From the NCBI GenBank assembly GCA_902500775.1, contig CABVRZ010000010.1, positions 1 through 64,000 of the forward strand: a stretch of 64,000 nucleotides of DNA, read 5' to 3'. The notes beneath the pieces are model-generated. The model made no database searches, was not told the origin of the DNA, and saw only the letters and a list, made by a program, of their open reading frames with translations. The translations under genes and the position numbers were made by a program. The DNA is from an uncultured Nitrospira sp. Lineage in GTDB: Bacteria; Nitrospirota; Nitrospiria; Nitrospirales; Nitrospiraceae. Below, piece after piece: positions 50,413 to 59,635 of this stretch (its first letter is position 1; every line of letters begins with the position of its first letter).

Positions 50413-52227
50413 ATGTTTCTGAAACGCTGGCTCGTTGGAGACCCCCTTAAGACTGCGCAAGCAAGGCACGAACGGCTCTCCAAAACAATCGCTCTTGCTA
50501 TCTTCTCATCAAACGCGATTTCGTCCGTCGCCTATGGAACGGAGGAAATCCTGCTGGTGTTGATTCTCGCTGGTCCGGCAGCCGTCGCCTGGTCGATTCC
50601 CGTCAGCTTCGCCATCCTCTTTCTCGTCGTGATGTTGACGATTTCCTACCGGCAAATCATCCACGAATATCCTGAAGGAGGCGGAGCCTACGTCGTCGCA
50701 CGAACGAACCTGGGTGACCAACCGGCTCTCGTGGCAGCTGCAGCCCTCATGATCGACTATGTCTTAACCGTAGCCGTCAGCGTGGCCGCCGGCATTGCGG
50801 CCCTGACATCCGCCATCCCAAGTCTATTTGTTCACCGCGAGGCCCTTGGATTGGTCGCCATTCTGTTCATCATCATGATGAACCTCCGTGGAGTTCGCGA
50901 ATCCGGCAAGTTTTTTGCTATTCCAACCTACTTTGCCATAGGAGCCCTTGGCCTTCTGGTTCTCGTAGGGACCGTTCGATCTCTCGCAAGTACCGGCGCA
51001 ATCCTCCCCCCCCCAACCCCTGTCGAGACAGAAGCGCTGACCCTGTTCCTCGTCCTCCGCGCCTTTGCAGCAGGGTGCTCAGCCGTGACTGGGATGGAAG
51101 TGATTTCAAACGGAGTCAAGGCCTTTCGCCCACCAGAGCCACGGAATGCGGCGATCACCATGGTCTGGATGTCCACGATCCTGGCCTCGCTCTTCATGGG
51201 TATCAGTTGGATGGCCTATCATAACGGCATCTTGGCCAAGATTGATGAAACCGTGATTTCCCAGCTCGCCCGATTGACATTCGGCACAGGCCTCATCTAC
51301 TACTCCATACAGATCGGCACCATGGCCTTGTTGGTATTGGCTGCGAACAGTGCCTTTGCCGGTTTTCCGCACCTGGCGTCGATCCTGGCACGCGACGGGT
51401 TCATGCCTCATCAGATGGCGACCTTTGGAGATCGACTGGTTTTTTCGAATGGCATTATCATCCTTGGGTTCTTTGCCTGCCTCCTACTTGTGATCTTCGA
51501 GGGCGACACACACGGATTGATTCCCTTATATGCCATCGGGGTATTTGCCTCCTTTACACTGTCTCAGGCGGGCATGGTGAAACAATGGCTTGTGAAGAAA
51601 GGACCACACTGGCAGACGAAACTGATCGTCAATGGAGCCGGTGCCTTGACGACCGGTATTGCGACGATCATCATTGCCACCACCAAATTCATGCAGGGCG
51701 CGTGGATCGTCTTTGTACTCGTTGCCATTCTCCTACTCATATTTCAGGGCATCCGCTCCCATTATAAAGCCGTCAGCGAACAGATCGCACTGGACCGACG
51801 GGGAGAACGACCGCCGTTGCCTCGGCGCAATATCGTCATTATTCCCGTCAGTGGAATGAATCGTGCCGTGGTTCGTGCACTGGACTACGCACGGAGTCGA
51901 CCGGGCGAAGTCCGCGCCGTGTTCATCGACGTGGATCCTGAAGAAAGTGCCAAGGTCAAAATCCAGTGGGCGCAATGGGGAGGCGGCGTGAATTTGATTG
52001 CGCTGTCGTCGCCCTATCGTTCGGTTCTTGGATCATTGCTGGACTACGTCGAGGAAGTCCTCGAAAAAGATCAGAATAGCTGGGTGACCGTCGTGATCCC
52101 AGAGATCCTACCGGCACGATGGTGGCAGAATATTCTCCATAACCAACGAGCGCTCATGCTCAAAGCCTCATTGCTGTTCAAAGAGCGCATAATTCTCATC
52201 GACGTCCCCTATCATTTGACGCGATGA
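50413..52227 (+). CDS. APC-superfamily permease with USP-like C-terminal domain
   Basis: 604 residues. About 12 hydrophobic segments fill residues 25-450, with the APC opening SKTIALAIFSSNAISSVAYGTEE and the loop YRQIIHEYPEGGGAYVVA. The last 140 residues form a soluble alpha/beta domain (RNIVIIPVSGMNRAVVRALDYARS...VRAVFIDVD) resembling universal-stress-protein domains that regulate transporters. Amino acid or potassium transport at the inner membrane is likely; the substrate is not defined by sequence. A run of nine C lies at 51006-51014 inside the gene. Confidence 0.8.
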   Translation: MFLKRWLVGDPLKTAQARHERLSKTIALAIFSSNAISSVAYGTEEILLVLILAGPAAVAWSIPVSFAILFLVVMLTISYRQIIHEYPEGGGAYVVARTNLGDQPALVAAAALMIDYVLTVAVSVAAGIAALTSAIPSLFVHREALGLVAILFIIMMNLRGVRESGKFFAIPTYFAIGALGLLVLVGTVRSLASTGAILPPPTPVETEALTLFLVLRAFAAGCSAVTGMEVISNGVKAFRPPEPRNAAITMVWMSTILASLFMGISWMAYHNGILAKIDETVISQLARLTFGTGLIYYSIQIGTMALLVLAANSAFAGFPHLASILARDGFMPHQMATFGDRLVFSNGIIILGFFACLLLVIFEGDTHGLIPLYAIGVFASFTLSQAGMVKQWLVKKGPHWQTKLIVNGAGALTTGIATIIIATTKFMQGAWIVFVLVAILLLIFQGIRSHYKAVSEQIALDRRGERPPLPRRNIVIIPVSGMNRAVVRALDYARSRPGEVRAVFIDVDPEESAKVKIQWAQWGGGVNLIALSSPYRSVLGSLLDYVEEVLEKDQNSWVTVVIPEILPARWWQNILHNQRALMLKASLLFKERIILIDVPYHLTR

Positions 52228-52234
52228 CAATGCC

Positions 52235-52266
52235 TCGTGAAGCGTGACTCGTGAAACGTGAAGCGC
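52235..52266. repeat. gtgaagcgtga/cgtgaaacgtgaagcg repeat
   Basis: Short direct units (cgtgaagcgtga, cgtgaaacgtgaagcg) are repeated between the permease stop and the next coding region. The GTG used as start codon of the following gene (52251) lies inside it. Such gtgaa-unit repeats look like a dispersed intergenic family, but no other copy was found in this window. Confidence 0.45.
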
Positions 52267-53288
52267 AGCTTCGGATCTCTCGCCTCGCTCTCTTCACCGC
52301 TTGCCTTGCAATGCCTTTTCCGGTTCATGCCTTCAAAATCACTGAACCGCCAGAAGGCGCCAAGCTCGCTGCTGGAACCACCATTACTGCGCGTGTGGAT
52401 TTAGGCAGGGACACCGGTGTCGTCACAGTCCGCTACTATTGGTACGGTGAGCAGGATGAAGTCCTGGTTGAACAGGATGACTCAACAGCCACAGGCTCTA
52501 TCGTGGCGCCAGTTGCCCTGATCGGATCCATCGAACAGGAACCCGCGTTTGGCGGTCCACTCAACGTTCCACACGACATCATCGGGCCAATGCGTCTTTT
52601 AGCGGTGGCTGAGATTTCTCGTGGGCGATTGGGCACCAGATCTGTTTTTGATGAGGTGATCGTAACGATCACCCCTCCTGCCGCCCTCACTGCGATTGAT
52701 TTTGAGACAGACAAGCCATTGCAACTTGGACGAGCAGGACAGTCCTCTGCCTTCGGCCATGTAGACTCGATGGGGAAAGTGTTCGAACTCCCCGTGGTCG
52801 GAGAATTTGCCGATAGAGTCACCCGGCACATCAATTCTCCAGCCAGCGGAACGAGCTACACATCGTCCAATAGTACGGTCATCAAAGTCCTACGTGATGG
52901 ACTCCTTCAAATCGTCGGCAACGGAAAAGCCATCATTACGGTCTCCAATCGTGGCAAACAGGCCTCATTGGATGTCGACGTGAATGTGAATGAGGAACCG
53001 AATGAACCACCGATCGCCGATTCCGGGACAAATAGGTCAGTCAAGGCCGGTTCTCGAGTAAAATTGAGTGGACTCAAAAGCCGTGACCCGGAGGGCGAAG
53101 CGCTCTACTATAGTTGGAGCCAAGTACGCGGCAGCAAAGTGGCTCTCCTCGACGCCAACAACTCAGAGGCGTCGTTCCTCGCGCCAACCGTGTCAGAACC
53201 GAGGACCTATCGCTTTAAGCTGCGCGTGACGGATAAGAAGGGAGCGGATAGCTTGCCGGCGCTTGTAGAGGTGACGGTAGAACCATAA
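52251..53288 (+). CDS. Exported protein with Ig-like and PKD-like domains
   Basis: 345 residues. The GTG start gives a signal peptide (RISRLALFTACLAMPFPVHA). The first 150 residues are beta-rich (GAKLAAGTTITARVDLG). A BIG2-like segment follows around SSNSTVIKVLRDGLLQIVGNGKAIITV, and the C-terminal 90 residues are a PKD/cadherin-like domain (PPIADSGTNRSVKAGSRVKLSG...YYSWSQVRGS...YRFKLRVTDKKG). Such proteins act in adhesion or surface structures outside the inner membrane. There is no anchor or sorting signal. The start lies in a repeat, so the true start is somewhat uncertain. Confidence 0.65.
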   Translation: MKREAQLRISRLALFTACLAMPFPVHAFKITEPPEGAKLAAGTTITARVDLGRDTGVVTVRYYWYGEQDEVLVEQDDSTATGSIVAPVALIGSIEQEPAFGGPLNVPHDIIGPMRLLAVAEISRGRLGTRSVFDEVIVTITPPAALTAIDFETDKPLQLGRAGQSSAFGHVDSMGKVFELPVVGEFADRVTRHINSPASGTSYTSSNSTVIKVLRDGLLQIVGNGKAIITVSNRGKQASLDVDVNVNEEPNEPPIADSGTNRSVKAGSRVKLSGLKSRDPEGEALYYSWSQVRGSKVALLDANNSEASFLAPTVSEPRTYRFKLRVTDKKGADSLPALVEVTVEP

Positions 53289-53378
53289 ACATATAAGGAG
53301 TCCTTCGCGAAGCGTGTCAGGCTCAGATCGGTATTGCCACGATAGTTATCCCCATTTTGTTATTAAACTTTGAACCTT

Positions 53379-54887
53379 ATGCTTCCCGCTGATTTCAAAG
53401 ATCGCCTCAATCAAATGATGGGCGTTAAGTTTGAGGAGATCGTAACGAGAACTCAGGACGCCTTCTCTAGAGACAGTGCGGAAACTGCCCGCAGAGGGCT
53501 TACACATTCAAGTTATACCTATGGGCTTTACCAAAAGAAGCGATCTCAAGAAATAGAAATGCGTGTCAGCGCCGTAGTCGAATGTCAAAAGCTCCTACTC
53601 TCTGCAATGCGCATCCCATTCAGCACAACATTGGCTTCGGAGCTTAAAACACTGACAGAGGCATGGGTGACGCTAGAGTGGTGCGAACGGTCTCTGCAAT
53701 CCGACCCTGATTGGGGCCTACAGAATGATTTCAAAATGGGCTTTCGAGAAGAAACCCTTCAGGCAAGAAACATGGCACTCCGAAAGGCTGCCATTGAGAT
53801 TGATCTACTCGTTGATGGATTACGCCCACTACAGAACAACCAGCCATCCGCACAAGTCAAAGAACTTGACCAAAAATTTAAGATTCTTCTTAGCCCAGAC
53901 CAGATCAAGAACGACTTCGATGAATGGGCAAAGCAACTTGCACCCATCAATGGGCAGATTGCTGTGCTATTCCTTGACCTCGACAAATTCAAAGAATTGA
54001 ATACTAGATATACAGAACCGAAAATTGATCAGGATTTCCTGCCCGACGCAATGCACCTGACAGAAAGGTTAGTTCGATTCCGTGGAGAGGCTGCAAAACA
54101 TGGCGGAGACGAATACGTTCTGACTCTTCCAAATCATGATGCCACAGAAGCTATGGCTTTTGCTGAAAAGCTTCGGCGAAACTTCGAACAACACACCTTT
54201 ACTGTCGCAGGGGACGAAATTCATATTACCGTGTCCATCGGTGTTGCCCTATGGCCATTACATGGTTCCACATATGACGACGTGCTCACAAAAGCAAGTG
54301 CTGCAAAACAAAGTGCTAAAGCAAATCGGAACAAAGTCGTTCTTACTCAAACGAGCACCACGGATAGCTTGCCTTTACCGCAGAGTGGGCTATCAGCTCA
54401 CGGGCAACGACTTGCTCAGTATTTGAATTTCAAGTCCGAAGCTGCCGATAGAGGAGAGTCTCTTCTCAGACCGGAACAAGTTCTCAGCGATACAAAAATG
54501 ACCGAAGAGCAGCTATCTATTGCAGCTGATGAGTTGAGGGCACGCGGGTGGGTCGAAGCTCAGGCTGATGGAAGTCTTGTTGGCTTTCGGTATATTCAGC
54601 CGACCATTTTTCTTTTTATTGAAACGGACCCAGGTTTAAAAGGATGGGATCCTCGCCAGGATGCAAAGACTGTAGCGAAGGCTGCAATTGAGATGAATGC
54701 TCAGTCACTTTCTACTCGTGAGGTAGGGAAAACACTCAGTTGGGAACCACGGCGCCTTAACCCAGCAATGAGTTGGCTTGAGAATAGAGGCCATGCAAAT
54801 TTTTCTAGTACCCTCGGGTCATCACCGTATCGATTCAGCACAATGTTTGTTACCCCTTCCACCCATCGCCTCGCATCAGAAGCATAA
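53379..54887 (+). CDS. Divergent GGDEF-like (GGDEY) protein with winged-helix-like tail
   Basis: About 502 residues from the ATG at 53379 (a TTG lies nine bases before). Residues 1-180 are helical and unassigned. About 190-325 is a GGDEF-type palm domain: VLFLDLDKFKELN, then HGGDEYVLTLPN (GGDEY 242-246) and VSIGVALWPLHG. The usual GHxxGD stretch is replaced by TEPKIDQDFLP, and no RxxD inhibitory site is seen. The last 150 residues contain two winged-helix-like units (LSDTKMTEEQLSIAADELRARGWVEA and LSTREVGKTLSWEPRRLNPAMSWLENRG). It could make a cyclic nucleotide, but this is uncertain. The gene is more AT-rich than its neighbours, suggesting transfer. Confidence 0.7.
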   Translation: MLPADFKDRLNQMMGVKFEEIVTRTQDAFSRDSAETARRGLTHSSYTYGLYQKKRSQEIEMRVSAVVECQKLLLSAMRIPFSTTLASELKTLTEAWVTLEWCERSLQSDPDWGLQNDFKMGFREETLQARNMALRKAAIEIDLLVDGLRPLQNNQPSAQVKELDQKFKILLSPDQIKNDFDEWAKQLAPINGQIAVLFLDLDKFKELNTRYTEPKIDQDFLPDAMHLTERLVRFRGEAAKHGGDEYVLTLPNHDATEAMAFAEKLRRNFEQHTFTVAGDEIHITVSIGVALWPLHGSTYDDVLTKASAAKQSAKANRNKVVLTQTSTTDSLPLPQSGLSAHGQRLAQYLNFKSEAADRGESLLRPEQVLSDTKMTEEQLSIAADELRARGWVEAQADGSLVGFRYIQPTIFLFIETDPGLKGWDPRQDAKTVAKAAIEMNAQSLSTREVGKTLSWEPRRLNPAMSWLENRGHANFSSTLGSSPYRFSTMFVTPSTHRLASEA

Positions 54888-54982
54888 CACATGCCCTCAG
54901 CTGCGCCTTGCTCAACCGCCCCAGCGTGTAGGTTTGGAGTTAGGTTTGAGTTCTTTGATGTGCTCTCCGAGAGTTATTCCTT

Positions 54983-55345
54983 CTAACCCACATTCTTTCG
55001 AATCCACTTGGTCAAAACGTCCTTGCCCACCTCGCCAGCCGCAACTTGCAGAGTGATTGATTCCAAATATTTTTGATCAGGAAGCTCCTCAATCTCGTTC
55101 ACTGTGAGAAAGGCAAGCGCAGAAAGAACCGCTGCCCGCTTGTTGTCATCAATGAAGGGGTGATTTTGTGCGATGTGGAACATGTAGGCAGCCGCCATCG
55201 CAGCACTATCTTCGTGGAGAAAGTCCCCGCTGAATTGCTGACGTGGCATAGTCACGGCGGCATCGAGTAAACCGTGATCTCTCACGCCGTGGGACCCACC
55301 ATCACTGTCTATGGTATCGGTGTGGAGCACCGGAATGTCCTCCAC
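54983..55345 (-). CDS. doc: Doc/Fic-type toxin, death-on-curing family
   Basis: 120 residues from a GTG. Fic fold features are SHGVRDHGLLDAAVTMPRQQF, AAAYMFHIAQNHPFIDDNKRAAVL and the ensuing helix. The active-site motif is HPFIDDNKR, where most homologues have Gly or Ala at the position after the first Asp; this substitution might lower activity. Doc phosphorylates elongation factor Tu and stops translation. The matching antitoxin gene lies four bases upstream but is split by an IS5-family element. The toxin frame itself is intact. Confidence 0.8.
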   Translation of the reverse strand: MEDIPVLHTDTIDSDGGSHGVRDHGLLDAAVTMPRQQFSGDFLHEDSAAMAAAYMFHIAQNHPFIDDNKRAAVLSALAFLTVNEIEELPDQKYLESITLQVAAGEVGKDVLTKWIRKNVG

Positions 55346-55532
55346 GGACTTAGTCTGCGAGCCGCTTCAGCATCGACCCATACTGCTTCCGCAGTTCTTT
55401 GATCGTGGCCTTCATGCGCTCGAGTCCCACACCAACGTTTGCCGGTGTAATGACGAGCGCGTTACCATTGACCGTCACTTGCCATGGCGTCTCTTCTGTG
55501 ATGCCCAGCGCCTGCATCACTGGCCTTTCATT

Positions 55533-56452
55533 AGACCTCTTGCATAACCTCACGGCATCAAGTCCTTGTTATAGGCGACCGCGATCAGCGTGAATCGGAG
55601 GCCGAAGCGTTTGCGGCGGTTTCGGTATCGGTCGGAGACGATCTTAAAGCGTTTCACGGCACCGATGACATGTTCGGCGGGGACGCGGTCTTTCGAGATC
55701 GTGCGGTTGTGCCGTTTGTCTGCCTTGTTCAGCGGATTCTTTTTGCTACGTTTTTTCGGCATCGTGGTGTGGCCATGTATCTTCTGCAGGCCCAGGTAGC
55801 CGGTGTCGGTCATGGCTGTGGTGTTGGGATGGAGTCGGACGCCAGACTCCTTGAGCACTCGGAAATCATGCCGGCGGCATGCGCAAGGCAGATGATCGTG
55901 CCCGTCGCCTTGTCGACGACGAGCTGGGTCTTCAGCGTGTGGCGCTTTTTCTTGCCCGAATAGTAGCGCCGCTGTTTTTTTGAGGGCGTTCCACGGGCGT
56001 TTCCGTCGCGTCGATGAGGACCACCTCGTAGGCTCGGTCACTCCTGACGAGAGCTTTCTTGCCCGGCAGCGTGAATACCCCGCTCGTGATGAGCGTGTCC
56101 TCGCACCAGCGGATGTTGCGATAGGCCGTACTCTCGCTGACTCCATAGCTGTGCCCAATGTGGAGATAGGTGCGGTATTCTCGCCAGTACTCCAGCGTCA
56201 TCCGCAGCCGCGTCTCCACTGTCAGCCGACTTGGCTTGCCGCCTTGCTTCTTGAGCGCCGCCTCGGCGACCTCCAGCACCGTGACCATCTCGGCAAACGT
56301 CCGTTTCCTCACCCCGGTCACCCGCCGGAACGTCTCCCCCGTTATTCCGGCACAGCCCTGAATTCCCATGCCACTCCTCCCTGTCAGAGCGAGCATGGGA
56401 CCACATTCAAGGCAGAAAGGGAATCCTCACCAGGAGGTTATGCAAGAAGTCT
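55533..56452 (-). mobile_element. IS5-family insertion sequence, 920 bp
   Basis: The 19-bp inverted repeats are agacctcttgcataacctc (55533-55551) and gaggttatgcaagaagtct (56434-56452), with one mismatch. They are flanked by the direct repeat att at 55530-55532 and 56453-56455, as expected for the IS1031/IS427 groups. The transposase is encoded on the minus strand. The intact target duplication shows that this copy inserted here and has not been rearranged since. Confidence 0.88.
55550..56369 (-). pseudogene. IS5-family transposase in several frames
   Basis: The first frame starts at 56369 behind gggaggag and carries GETFRRVTGVRKRTFAEMV, an HTH and VVLIDATETPVERPQK. At a run of seven A (near 55975) the coding frame must shift to read KQRRYYSGKKKRHTLKTQLVVDKATG, which may be programmed slippage as in the IS427 group. 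A second change of frame is needed near 55875 to reach HDFRVLKESGVRLHP and the end at 55550 (VIGAVKRFKIVSDRYRN). The second shift is at no slippery site and is likely a real mutation, or a sequencing error. Confidence 0.75.
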
Positions 56453-56690
56453 ATTGATCAGCGTCACACTCTTCCCATGTTTTTGTAATTTCTTAATCAT
56501 TCCTCATCTTGCGTTCTTACAATGCTGCAACGCATACCAAGCAATATTTAATCGAAAGGAAGGGTAAAGAGGAGGGTGGTGCCGGTCCGAAGATTCGTGC
56601 TGTTTAGATTTAGCAGTAACACTATGGTGGAGAATAAGGAGATTCAGGCCACCTATTCACAGATAAATTGTAATTGAACAGAATCGCTTG

Positions 56691-57251
56691 CTACTGATCC
56701 GCTCCACTCCCTCCCCGCACACACCAGACTTTGAAGGCAGACACCTTACTGGTCATGTGGACATGGCCATTGCTCAAATGGAGGTGCCAGGCCTTTGAAG
56801 GGTCACCGTCCGCAGAGGCCGACCAATAGAACCCAGATGGGTTACTAAGAAAAGGATGGCCGGATGGAAGCATGGAACCGGAATCCTGGTTAGATGGGTC
56901 AAGCAGACTAGTCAGTTCCACAATCGCCGGTAACCTCCAGCCTCGTTGACCACCGATTGTTTTATTCAGGCAGGAAGACTTGGCAGCCTTCCAGTCAGCA
57001 AGCCCCGTCTCAGAAGCCCGTTCCCAGACAAGACCTGTATTCTGATCCAACACGGCTTCGCTGTTAAAATTCTCCAGCACAACGAACCGCTCCTCGGTGG
57101 GCAATGTTTGATCCCACGAAGGTACTGTATGGAAAGGTCTCTCAAACGGAGAGTGCGCCTGTCCCAAGTCAACCATACCTGCAACAACTATAAGGGCAGT
57201 CCCGGCCATTATTCCCGTGCCATTGCTCCGATACCTGCCTAATTGCATCAC
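56691..57251 (-). CDS. Exported Lcl/DUF1566-domain protein
   Basis: 186 residues. A hydrophobic N-terminal segment (GIMAGTALIVVAGMVDLGQA) serves as signal peptide. The domain shows NTGLVWERASETGLADWKAA, GQRGWRLPAIVELTSLLD, FYWSASADGDPSKAWHLHLSNG and the end KVWCVRGG, the pattern of DUF1566 (Lcl C-terminal) proteins known from adhesins and lectin-like surface proteins. Cellular role unknown; likely periplasmic or surface. Confidence 0.8.
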   Translation of the reverse strand: MMQLGRYRSNGTGIMAGTALIVVAGMVDLGQAHSPFERPFHTVPSWDQTLPTEERFVVLENFNSEAVLDQNTGLVWERASETGLADWKAAKSSCLNKTIGGQRGWRLPAIVELTSLLDPSNQDSGSMLPSGHPFLSNPSGFYWSASADGDPSKAWHLHLSNGHVHMTSKVSAFKVWCVRGGSGADQ

Positions 57252-57384
57252 ACGCTTCCTCCTAGATTAAACGGCTGCGAGGGCAGCGCAGCCCCCATCA
57301 TCCGCATGACCCAAGGCGCCCCCTTCACGCTGGGGGTAGATCTGAGAACAACCCAACCGACGTCCACGAGGTAGACCTTATCCG

Positions 57385-57981
57385 CTAGGCCCCTTGCTTT
57401 GCTTTCCCCCGTACAACGAGGGCAACTACCTGTAGCAGTTTTTCAACCCGAGCCTTGTATTGGTTCATGAACTGAGCCGTCCACATCGTGTTGTACTCAA
57501 TGGCCGCGCTCTTCTTCATCCCTGCATCCTTTTCACCGACGGGAGAGGAATAGTGCGCGATCAGACGATCCAGCTCATCTTCACCGAACGTTCTCGAATA
57601 CGCCTGTTTGAGATGATCATGGAGCGTTTCCATCTTTCCCATCGACTGCCTGATGTCTTTCAGAAAAGCATCCAGAAGCCGCTCGATTTCCTTCTTCGTG
57701 TCACCATTCACATTAGGGTAGCTGGCCGCAATAGACTTTCTGATTTGTTGTTCGTACTCGGTGACATATTTTTGCGTGAGCGTTTCGTATTCCGACTCGA
57801 GTTCTGATACTCGGATGAGTGTCAGTAACTTCTCAATCTTGATGGACTTGGAGGTCTCAATCGTGGATGCATCAACAGCTGTTCCCCCAGCCACCAACGT
57901 CATGCTACAGAAGCACCCCAGTAGAGTACCCAGTGCAAGGCTACCGTCGTGTCTTTTGTCTTTGTCTCGCATCGTCCTCAC
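57385..57981 (-). CDS. Exported DUF2059-like helical protein
   Basis: 198 residues with a signal-peptide-like segment (LALGTLLGCFCSMTLVAGGTA). The mature part is helical: KIEKLLTLIRVSELESEYETLTQKYV, a middle region, and ELDRLIAHYSSPVGEKDAGMKKSAAIEYN, which matches the DUF2059 pattern (HYxSPxGxK). Such proteins are periplasmic with unknown function. It follows the HExxH gene by about 60 bp on the same strand and could share its transcript. Confidence 0.75.
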   Translation of the reverse strand: MRTMRDKDKRHDGSLALGTLLGCFCSMTLVAGGTAVDASTIETSKSIKIEKLLTLIRVSELESEYETLTQKYVTEYEQQIRKSIAASYPNVNGDTKKEIERLLDAFLKDIRQSMGKMETLHDHLKQAYSRTFGEDELDRLIAHYSSPVGEKDAGMKKSAAIEYNTMWTAQFMNQYKARVEKLLQVVALVVRGKAKQGA

Positions 57982-58042
57982 CTCTTGCGACCGAGTCTAC
58001 TCCGATTGGAGTGATCGTCAAGAAATAGAGTACCTTCTACGA

Positions 58043-59635
58043 TCAAGATTGGTTCGTGCGGATCAGGCCGTAGTTGTGACGAGCTCGATGAAGCGCTCTG
58101 ACATGTCGGCGCAAGGCAGGACCAAATGAAGACTGTTCCACGACCTGACGAAAGCGTCTACTGATTCGCTCGACATGAGTGATCGCCTCGGCCAACTCCT
58201 GCACGAGTGTTCGGCCGGCACTGGTGAGCCACCCCAACCGCTCATCGGCATACTGCAGATCAAGCAGAGAATATCGAACTGATTCCACTTCCTCTAAACA
58301 GCGGAAACGCGCCCGTTGCAAGTCTCGAGGGGAAAGACCCGCCTGTTTCCATTTCGCCGATCCACCGCGCCCCGCACCCCATGCAGACAGCCGCTGGAAC
58401 AACAGGGCGCCCATCGTAAACGTGAAGGTCGCGTGCAGAATACCGCGCAGCGGACGTAGACTGCGCCGCCAGGGCGAGTAAAAGATCTGCTGATTATGAT
58501 CGCCCCGATACATGACCTGTTTTCGCAACAGAAGGTTCAGATGGTGATGACTGTTCTCATGAATCAGATCATCGATCAGGTCGAGATTGTCGCGGTCGAA
58601 ACAGTTGATAAAGGATAGTCCTGGCCGATGTCGATAGCTGAAGCTGACGACACCTTTGGCCTTCAACGGAATGATGCGTGAGCTCAACAGCGCTAGCACA
58701 TCATGACCTTCAGGCCAGGCAAGTCGAATCGTCTCCCATGCACATGTGATGCGTTCGACCTGCCGCTGATCGGTGGGCAAGACCTTTCTCGGCTGGCGGT
58801 GTTTTCCATAAGCCAGAGTTGGACCAACGGTGACGGGATCACGCTCGCCTTGGACTGCGACCACGGGGTCCCGATAGGCCCACTGCCATTGTGCAGTCTT
58901 TCCCCAACCAGACCAGATCGGTGACACGTTCCTGCCGACATTCATGCTGATCCCACTAGACTCGACATGAAAGGCCACAGCCCCTGACGACTGAGACAAG
59001 ACCTGCCGCATCTCATGCGGCGCCTGACACCAGGCGCCCACAAGACCGGTGGAGATCGTCTCCGGAAGTTCGGCCTTTTCAAAATGATCCTTCACGCTTC
59101 CCGGCACCTCCCACCGCCCCTTCTTCTGCCGCCGCATCCATGTGACTGCCAACCCAGGATCAAGCCAGAGCGATTCCTGCGTCAGTTCCCCCGCCAATCG
59201 TCGACAGAGCGCAAACAACCGCGTCTCCAGACCACGAGCCTGCGGACGTCCGCGTGGGAATAAATCATCAAAGTAGCCGTGTTCGAAAAATTTCTCCTGA
59301 CACTCGTCGAACAGCTGAGCCACAAACTCAGACCGATCGTGCTCCATTTTCAGTTGCTGGCACAAATCAAGGAGATACACGAGATCGTTCAACGCCTCGA
59401 TCCAGCCGACAACTTTCCAGTTTGAATAGGACTCCAGTGGGAATGCTGAGCGAAGGCTGTTTAAGAAACCCGTGGGTAGCCTTAATTCTCTGGCCAGATC
59501 AACGTGGTCCGCACGGAGCTCTCGACAGAGATCAGCATAGAGTCGCCGCATCGAGAGACGAAATGCATGCTGTAAGGTCGCGAGAGGGCGTGGATCCAGC
59601 AGATGCATCGTGAGAGTGTTTTGCACAATGGTCAC
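58043..59635 (-). CDS. HExxH-motif protein resembling peptide beta-hydroxylases
   Basis: 530 residues from GTG (an ATG nine codons later is possible). The metal motif is LIHENSHHHLNLLL (His359, Glu360, His363), followed by YSPWRRSLRPLRGILHATF with His401 as possible third ligand. The combination of HExxH and a downstream PWR...RPL.G.LHA stretch is that of the HExxH putative peptide-modification family, members of which hydroxylate RiPP precursors using 2-oxoglutarate. The N-terminal 300 residues are helical and unassigned. No leader-peptide recognition protein or transporter is adjacent. A 38-codon ORF lies directly upstream. The assignment to a peptide-modifying enzyme is an inference from motifs. 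Confidence 0.65.
   Translation of the reverse strand: MTIVQNTLTMHLLDPRPLATLQHAFRLSMRRLYADLCRELRADHVDLARELRLPTGFLNSLRSAFPLESYSNWKVVGWIEALNDLVYLLDLCQQLKMEHDRSEFVAQLFDECQEKFFEHGYFDDLFPRGRPQARGLETRLFALCRRLAGELTQESLWLDPGLAVTWMRRQKKGRWEVPGSVKDHFEKAELPETISTGLVGAWCQAPHEMRQVLSQSSGAVAFHVESSGISMNVGRNVSPIWSGWGKTAQWQWAYRDPVVAVQGERDPVTVGPTLAYGKHRQPRKVLPTDQRQVERITCAWETIRLAWPEGHDVLALLSSRIIPLKAKGVVSFSYRHRPGLSFINCFDRDNLDLIDDLIHENSHHHLNLLLRKQVMYRGDHNQQIFYSPWRRSLRPLRGILHATFTFTMGALLFQRLSAWGAGRGGSAKWKQAGLSPRDLQRARFRCLEEVESVRYSLLDLQYADERLGWLTSAGRTLVQELAEAITHVERISRRFRQVVEQSSFGPALRRHVRALHRARHNYGLIRTNQS

What the first reader, a model, noticed from the sequence alone, without database searches (positions are those of the whole stretch)
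55350..56500. IS5 insertion splits the antitoxin of a Doc toxin; exact repair is possible in silico
Removing 55533-56452 together with one att copy restores a 75-codon AbrB-like antitoxin in frame, four bases before doc. The 3-bp duplication proves in situ insertion. A cell carrying an intact toxin without its antitoxin should be harmed unless expression is lost, the toxin is weak, or another antitoxin helps. The insertion also separates doc from the original promoter.
Basis: seen in the sequence. Interest (0 to 1): 0.7.

Follow-up and report, generated by a model that had tools for sequence, protein, structure and literature searches.

The report
Decayed toxin-antitoxin operon split by IS
In a Nitrospira genome a jumping gene has cut the antidote gene of a poison-antidote pair, but the poison gene and the pair's promoter are damaged too, so this is most likely a harmless relic and not a cell living with an unguarded toxin.

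Summary
A 920-bp IS5-family element (55533-56452, duplicated ATT) splits a 75-codon MazE/AbrB-like antitoxin immediately before doc. More than 20 Nitrospira relatives carry the uninterrupted antitoxin, and L035 is syntenic on both sides. The inferred antitoxin frame matches them.

"Intact toxin" is not supported. Against all aligned relatives, doc has lost 24 bp in frame (8 N-terminal residues, including a conserved F-L-S) and ends early. Its Fic motif is HPFIDDNKR where other Nitrospira have G. That change is weak evidence, because some distant Docs also have D.

The antitoxin has new residues at five positions invariant in 23 relatives. One, I16N, lies in the duplicated codon, so it predates the insertion. 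The operon's conserved promoter (TAGACA-N17-TAACAT) is mutated in both hexamers. The IS copy itself carries about 8 derived substitutions and a frameshifting deletion.

Best reading: the operon lost function first, or in parallel, and the IS landed in an almost dead locus. The supposed paradox largely disappears. A surviving alternative is that the IS end supplies a start codon for the antitoxin's toxin-binding half. Whether this Doc still poisons cells needs a bench test. Ordinary TA decay; low interest.

The parts
55533..56452 (-). IS5-family insertion sequence, 920 bp, transposase on the minus strand (same direction as doc)
   Evidence: Terminal repeats and duplicated ATT; IS5 transposase model NF033581 over both halves; second copy in this genome at C52, 98% identical
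55530..55532 (.). Left copy of the 3-bp target duplication (ATT); on the minus strand it is antitoxin codon 16 (AAT, Asn)
56453..56455 (.). Right copy of the 3-bp target duplication (ATT)
56456..56500 (-). Antitoxin codons 1-15 (ATG at 56500-56498), 5' fragment of the split gene
   Evidence: Frame and homology to intact relatives
55350..55529 (-). Antitoxin codons 17-75 and stop, 3' fragment; holds the part that aligns with the Doc-binding C-terminal helix of the E. faecalis antitoxin
55350..55553 (-). Possible hybrid ORF, 67 aa: GTG inside the IS end (overlapping the TGA of the transposase frame), 7 IS-derived codons, then antitoxin residues 16-75; AAGGA lies 9 nt upstream of the GTG
   Evidence: ORF list; sequence view; expression untested
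54983..55345 (-). doc, 120 codons, N-terminally shortened by 8 codons relative to relatives and ending 3 codons before the stop of the nearest syntenic relative L035
   Evidence: PF02661 E=4e-11; TIGR01550 39.3 bits against cut-off 38.65; N-terminal comparison
55136..55162 (-). Fic motif HPFIDDNKR; every other Nitrospira doc of this clade has G at position 6
56522..56527 (-). Position of the conserved -10 hexamer of the operon promoter: TAACAT in 22 of 23 relatives, CAGCAT here
56545..56550 (-). Position of the conserved -35 hexamer (TAGACA or TGGACA in most relatives), TAAATA here
55875..55882 (-). Site of a 7-bp deletion in the transposase relative to the C52 copy and other copies; it shifts the frame

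Best explanation
This is a vertically inherited MazE/AbrB-type antitoxin + Doc operon of Nitrospira in an advanced state of decay. Shown from sequence: the doc gene lost 24 bp between two imperfect copies of GTGGARGAC, which removes 8 N-terminal codons but keeps the start codon's position; the promoter hexamers changed; the antitoxin collected replacements at otherwise invariant positions; an IS5-family element then split the antitoxin, with a 3-bp duplication that copied an already mutated codon; and the IS copy has lost its own reading frame. Inferred: the toxin lost activity or expression before or around the time of the insertion, which relaxed the need for the antitoxin, so the insertion cost the cell little. 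There is then no unguarded active toxin to explain.
For: The 24-bp doc deletion is absent from all 22 relatives in which the doc N-terminus could be aligned and removes the conserved aromatic-hydrophobic segment before helix 1 that is found across phyla. Antitoxin: 8 residues seen in no relative, 5 of them at sites invariant in 23 relatives (N10K, A13T, I16N, K18R, L32W); other Nitrospira antitoxins have 0-5 such unique residues, mostly 0-1. N10, A13, I16 and L32 are also invariant across phyla. Both copies of the duplication read AAT for codon 16 where all 23 relatives have ATT or ATC, so I16N predates insertion. Branch test: antitoxin omega 0.177 on this branch against 0.041 elsewhere, p=0.007. 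Promoter: TAACAT to CAGCAT and TAGACA to TAAATA. If the IS has drifted about 0.9% (8 substitutions in ~913 bp), only 1-2 antitoxin replacements are expected since insertion, against 8 seen (Poisson P 0.0002 to 0.004 for means 1.5 to 2.5). In relatives with a broken doc, the antitoxin stays intact (L013/L045, L017, L020/L111, L032/L113, L033/L114), and in L099/L112 the doc 5' end is gone and no antitoxin was found. The window is the only locus seen where an IS splits the antitoxin.
Against: Doc shows no significant rise in omega on this branch (0.192 against 0.136, p=0.35) and neutrality over the whole branch is rejected, so its decay must be recent or incomplete. Doc is still open, still passes the DOC_P1 cut-off, and AlphaFold still gives it a Doc-like fold (pLDDT 84 for the best of five uneven models; best PDB match P1 Doc). 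The G-to-D change occurs naturally in distant Docs L057-L061. The antitoxin p-value is one of 23 branches tested per gene and is not corrected. The deletion, promoter changes and IS cannot be ordered among themselves, apart from I16N.
Confidence: 0.78

Rival explanations
1. Rewired pair: the IS end supplies a start codon (GTG at 55553) and possibly transcription, so that the antitoxin's C-terminal part, which binds Doc, is still made just ahead of doc, without its N-terminal DNA-binding half.
For: 67-aa ORF in frame with antitoxin residues 16-75, GTG overlapping the stop of the transposase frame, AAGGA 9 nt upstream. In the closest solved pair, 9VZC, residues 52-79 of the antitoxin bind Doc and 1-55 bind DNA (PMC13034048); our antitoxin profile aligns to that chain over 3-73.
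Against: No promoter-like site on the minus strand inside the IS. The neutralising part also carries unusual residues (P52L, P68S). The transposase frame is broken. Doc is itself truncated, so there may be nothing to neutralise.
Confidence: 0.1
2. One reading: an active Doc remains without its antitoxin and is tolerated only because it is weak or not expressed.
For: doc is open, passes TIGR01550, retains the motif His, Phe, Asp, Asn, Lys and Arg, and its omega is not raised. The conserved promoter is degraded and the IS intervenes.
Against: Loss of a conserved N-terminal segment; the antitoxin changed before the insertion, which suggests that the need for it was already gone.
Confidence: 0.1
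3. Another antitoxin in the genome protects the cell from Doc.
For: Three other MazE-domain proteins exist in the genome.
Against: A search with the relative's antitoxin finds only the split gene itself and one non-significant hit (E 0.35, 32% identity over 44 residues); no second copy of this pair exists.
Confidence: 0.02

Closest known systems
Enterococcus faecalis EFPhd-EFDoc (PDB 9VZC; PMC13034048)
   Same: Doc-family toxin preceded by a ~79-residue antitoxin with an AbrB-like N-terminal half and a Doc-binding C-terminal helix; sequence match over almost the whole antitoxin
   Different: The window's antitoxin is split by an IS and its Doc lacks the N-terminal segment
Phage P1 Phd-Doc (PDB 3K33, 3DD7, 3KH2)
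   Same: Doc homologue by sequence and predicted fold, Fic motif with NKR ending
   Different: Antitoxin is MazE/AbrB-like, not Phd-like; 5 fewer N-terminal residues when aligned at the helix-1 His; D at motif position 6 instead of A
Intact MazE/AbrB-Doc operons of Nitrospira (e.g. L035, L036, L037)
   Same: Same gene order and, for L035, same chromosomal neighbours over 7 kb
   Different: Uninterrupted antitoxin, full-length doc, conserved promoter
hok-sok copies of E. coli K-12 inactivated by insertion sequences, and ccdO157 decay (PMC2654758)
   Same: Chromosomal TA loci that lose addiction through insertions, point mutations and rearrangements
   Different: Those reported there are a type I system (hok-sok) and another type II system (ccd)

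Membership tests
Doc family (TIGR01550, Fic/Doc) | Curated model score | tested here: met
   39.3 bits against cut-off 38.65; PF02661 44 against 24
Doc family (TIGR01550, Fic/Doc) | Motif HxFx(D/N)(A/G)NKR (consensus as given in PMC4177925) | tested here: not met
   HPFIDDNKR: D at position 6; other positions fit; five distant Doc homologues share the D
Doc family (TIGR01550, Fic/Doc) | Complete N-terminal segment before helix 1 | tested here: not met
   8 codons missing relative to 22 aligned relatives
Doc family (TIGR01550, Fic/Doc) | Kinase activity on EF-Tu, growth arrest | not testable with these tools
   needs expression
MazE/AbrB-type antitoxin partner of Doc (PF04014, TIGR02609) | Curated model score | tested here: not met
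   Intact relative L035: PF04014 22.9 against 24.7, TIGR02609 24.5 against 55.9; the window's inferred frame scores lower still
MazE/AbrB-type antitoxin partner of Doc (PF04014, TIGR02609) | Homology to solved AbrB/MazE antitoxins and position directly upstream of doc | tested here: met
   Profile matches 7D2N, 9VZC_B, MazE chains; adjacent to doc in all intact relatives of this clade
IS5-family insertion sequence | Terminal inverted repeats with a short target duplication | tested here: met
   AGAC(C/T)TCTTGCATAACC ends; ATT duplication; 8 of 12 genus copies with identical 3-bp flanks
IS5-family insertion sequence | IS5 transposase model | tested here: inconclusive
   NF033581 hits both halves (70 and 81 bits) but each is below the 140-bit cut-off because the gene is in two frames and has a 7-bp deletion
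IS5-family insertion sequence | Subgroup (ISL2, IS427, IS1031) | not tested
   From memory a 3-bp ANT target suggests ISL2; not checked against ISfinder

The most novel reading that the evidence does not exclude
The IS has turned the antitoxin into an IS-started, DNA-binding-deficient neutraliser (7 IS codons plus antitoxin residues 16-75) that still guards a partly active Doc, so the module has been rewired from autoregulation to IS-driven expression.
Probability: 0.06. Interest if true: 0.5.

Novelty: new member of a known kind. Interest (0 to 1): 0.18.

Why it matters
It shows that an apparent paradox, a toxin without its antitoxin, can follow from reading one gene as intact without comparing it with relatives. 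It also gives a small natural series in one genus in which decay of a chromosomal Doc pair is seen in the toxin in every damaged locus, often with the antitoxin still whole, as addiction theory would predict. Decay of chromosomal TA loci through IS and point mutations is already described (PMC2654758).

Tried and rejected
A 2-bp TA duplication with slightly shorter IS ends was considered and rejected, because relatives have 75 and not 76 codons. I first took G-to-D in the Fic motif as clearly inactivating, then downgraded it because distant Docs L057-L061 carry it; those were found partly because the search seed held that motif. Assembly chimerism at the IS was considered and rejected: L035 is syntenic across both flanks. 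A second antitoxin in the genome was sought and not found. A promoter inside the IS reading towards doc was sought and not found with a simple consensus scan. A search for an empty site in the same species found no second genome. One Pfam call failed on a frame error and was repeated.

Full report
The element and its borders. The 920-bp element runs from 55533 to 56452, with ends AGACCTCT and AGAAGTCT and the trinucleotide ATT on both sides. A second copy, 98% identical, lies elsewhere in the genome at C52 and also has ATT on both sides; a third, about 78-83% identical copy lies in two pieces at C3. Of 12 complete copies in the genus, eight have identical 3-bp flanks, always ATT or AAT, so the borders are secure. 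Both halves of the transposase match the IS5 model NF033581. The two frames meet at A AAA AAC, a classical -1 frameshift site. The window copy also has a 7-bp deletion in the second half that other copies lack, so it is probably dead.

The empty site. Relatives carry an uninterrupted 75-codon antitoxin followed directly by doc. L035 (Nitrospira sp. UW-LDO-01) matches the window from 52000 to 59000 on both sides of the element at about 80% identity. The alignment breaks exactly at the IS, and 923 bp (element plus one ATT) are extra in the window. No second genome of the same species is held.

The toxin gene is not whole. In relatives doc reads (M/V)EDIIFLSVDDVLLLHTDTID..., whereas the window reads MEDIPVLHTDTID.... 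In DNA, relatives have GTGGAAGACATCATTTTCCTTAGC followed by GTGGACGACGTTCTGTTGCTCC, and the window has a single GTGGAGGACATTCCGGTGCTCC. Exactly 24 bp are lost between two imperfect repeats. No other doc shares this. A hydrophobic or aromatic pair before helix 1 is present in homologues from other phyla. The window's doc also ends 3 codons before that of L035. The Fic motif is HPFIDDNKR where all 23 aligned Nitrospira homologues have G. The published Doc consensus has A or G there (PMC4177925), yet five distant homologues have D as well, so I give this little weight. AlphaFold still predicts a Doc-like fold (mean pLDDT 84 for the best model, five models uneven; best PDB match P1 Doc). It cannot tell whether the protein is active.

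The antitoxin had changed before the IS came. The inferred uninterrupted frame has 8 residues found in none of 23 relatives, five of them at positions invariant there and four at positions invariant across phyla. The duplicated trinucleotide is codon 16. Both copies say Asn, while all 23 relatives have Ile. Since the duplication copies the target as it was, this change was already present. A two-ratio codon model gives omega 0.177 on this branch against 0.041 elsewhere (p=0.007, not corrected for the 23 branches tested), but no significant rise for doc. The IS copy differs from the C52 copy by about 8 derived substitutions, under 1%. At that level only one or two antitoxin replacements are expected since insertion, so most of the eight are older. 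This rests on the assumption that the IS drifts neutrally and that its source resembled the C52 copy.

The promoter. Almost all relatives have T(A/G)GACA, 17 bases, TAACAT, and then 20-21 bases to the ATG. The window has TAAATA and CAGCAT in the same places. The operon's own promoter is therefore damaged, besides being cut off by the IS. The simple scan finds no promoter inside the IS towards doc. Neither result measures transcription.

Context in the genus. Where doc is broken in relatives (start codon and motif in L013/L045; frameshift in L017; an insertion in L020/L111; 3' loss in L032/L113; an internal deletion in L033/L114) the antitoxin is intact. In L099/L112 the 5' end of doc is gone and no antitoxin was found upstream. 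I saw no locus in which the antitoxin alone was broken.

Mechanism. The best reading is a decaying chromosomal TA operon. Shown: the deletion, the promoter changes, I16N before the IS, the IS insertion and the IS's own frameshift. Inferred: loss of toxin activity or expression preceded or accompanied the insertion. The main rival is that the hybrid ORF beginning at the GTG in the IS end (55553) still supplies the C-terminal, toxin-binding half of the antitoxin. In the closest solved pair, E. faecalis 9VZC, residues 52-79 of the antitoxin bind Doc and 1-55 bind DNA (PMC13034048).

Novelty. Chromosomal TA loci inactivated by IS, point mutations and rearrangements are described (PMC2654758). This is a new instance of a known kind, with a usefully clear order of at least one step.

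Noticed in passing
window 55533-56452; G000 C52:17941-18867: The IS5-family transposase is in two frames joined at A AAA AAC (likely -1 programmed frameshift), conserved in most genus copies; the window copy has an extra 7-bp frameshifting deletion.
   Followed up: partly
window 55350-55553, minus strand: The IS end carries a GTG overlapping the transposase stop, so any gene hit in this orientation and phase gets a new start codon 7 codons before the junction.
   Followed up: partly
L020/L111, L032/L113, L033/L114, L017, L013/L045: Five other Nitrospira loci have a broken doc beside an intact antitoxin; in L020 a transposase-sized insertion sits in doc near codon 20.
   Followed up: partly
window 53370-54887, plus strand: 505-aa protein with a central GGDEF domain, convergent with doc; conserved at this place in L035 but not at the other doc loci compared.
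   Followed up: no
L026, L027: A doc-like gene with a match to the antitoxin's C-terminal part located after doc instead of before it.
   Followed up: no
G000 C3:109877-110161, C1:285436-285768, C24:65764-65868: Three other Fic-domain matches in the genome: two larger Fic proteins (open frames of 345 and 399 aa) and one short match.
   Followed up: no
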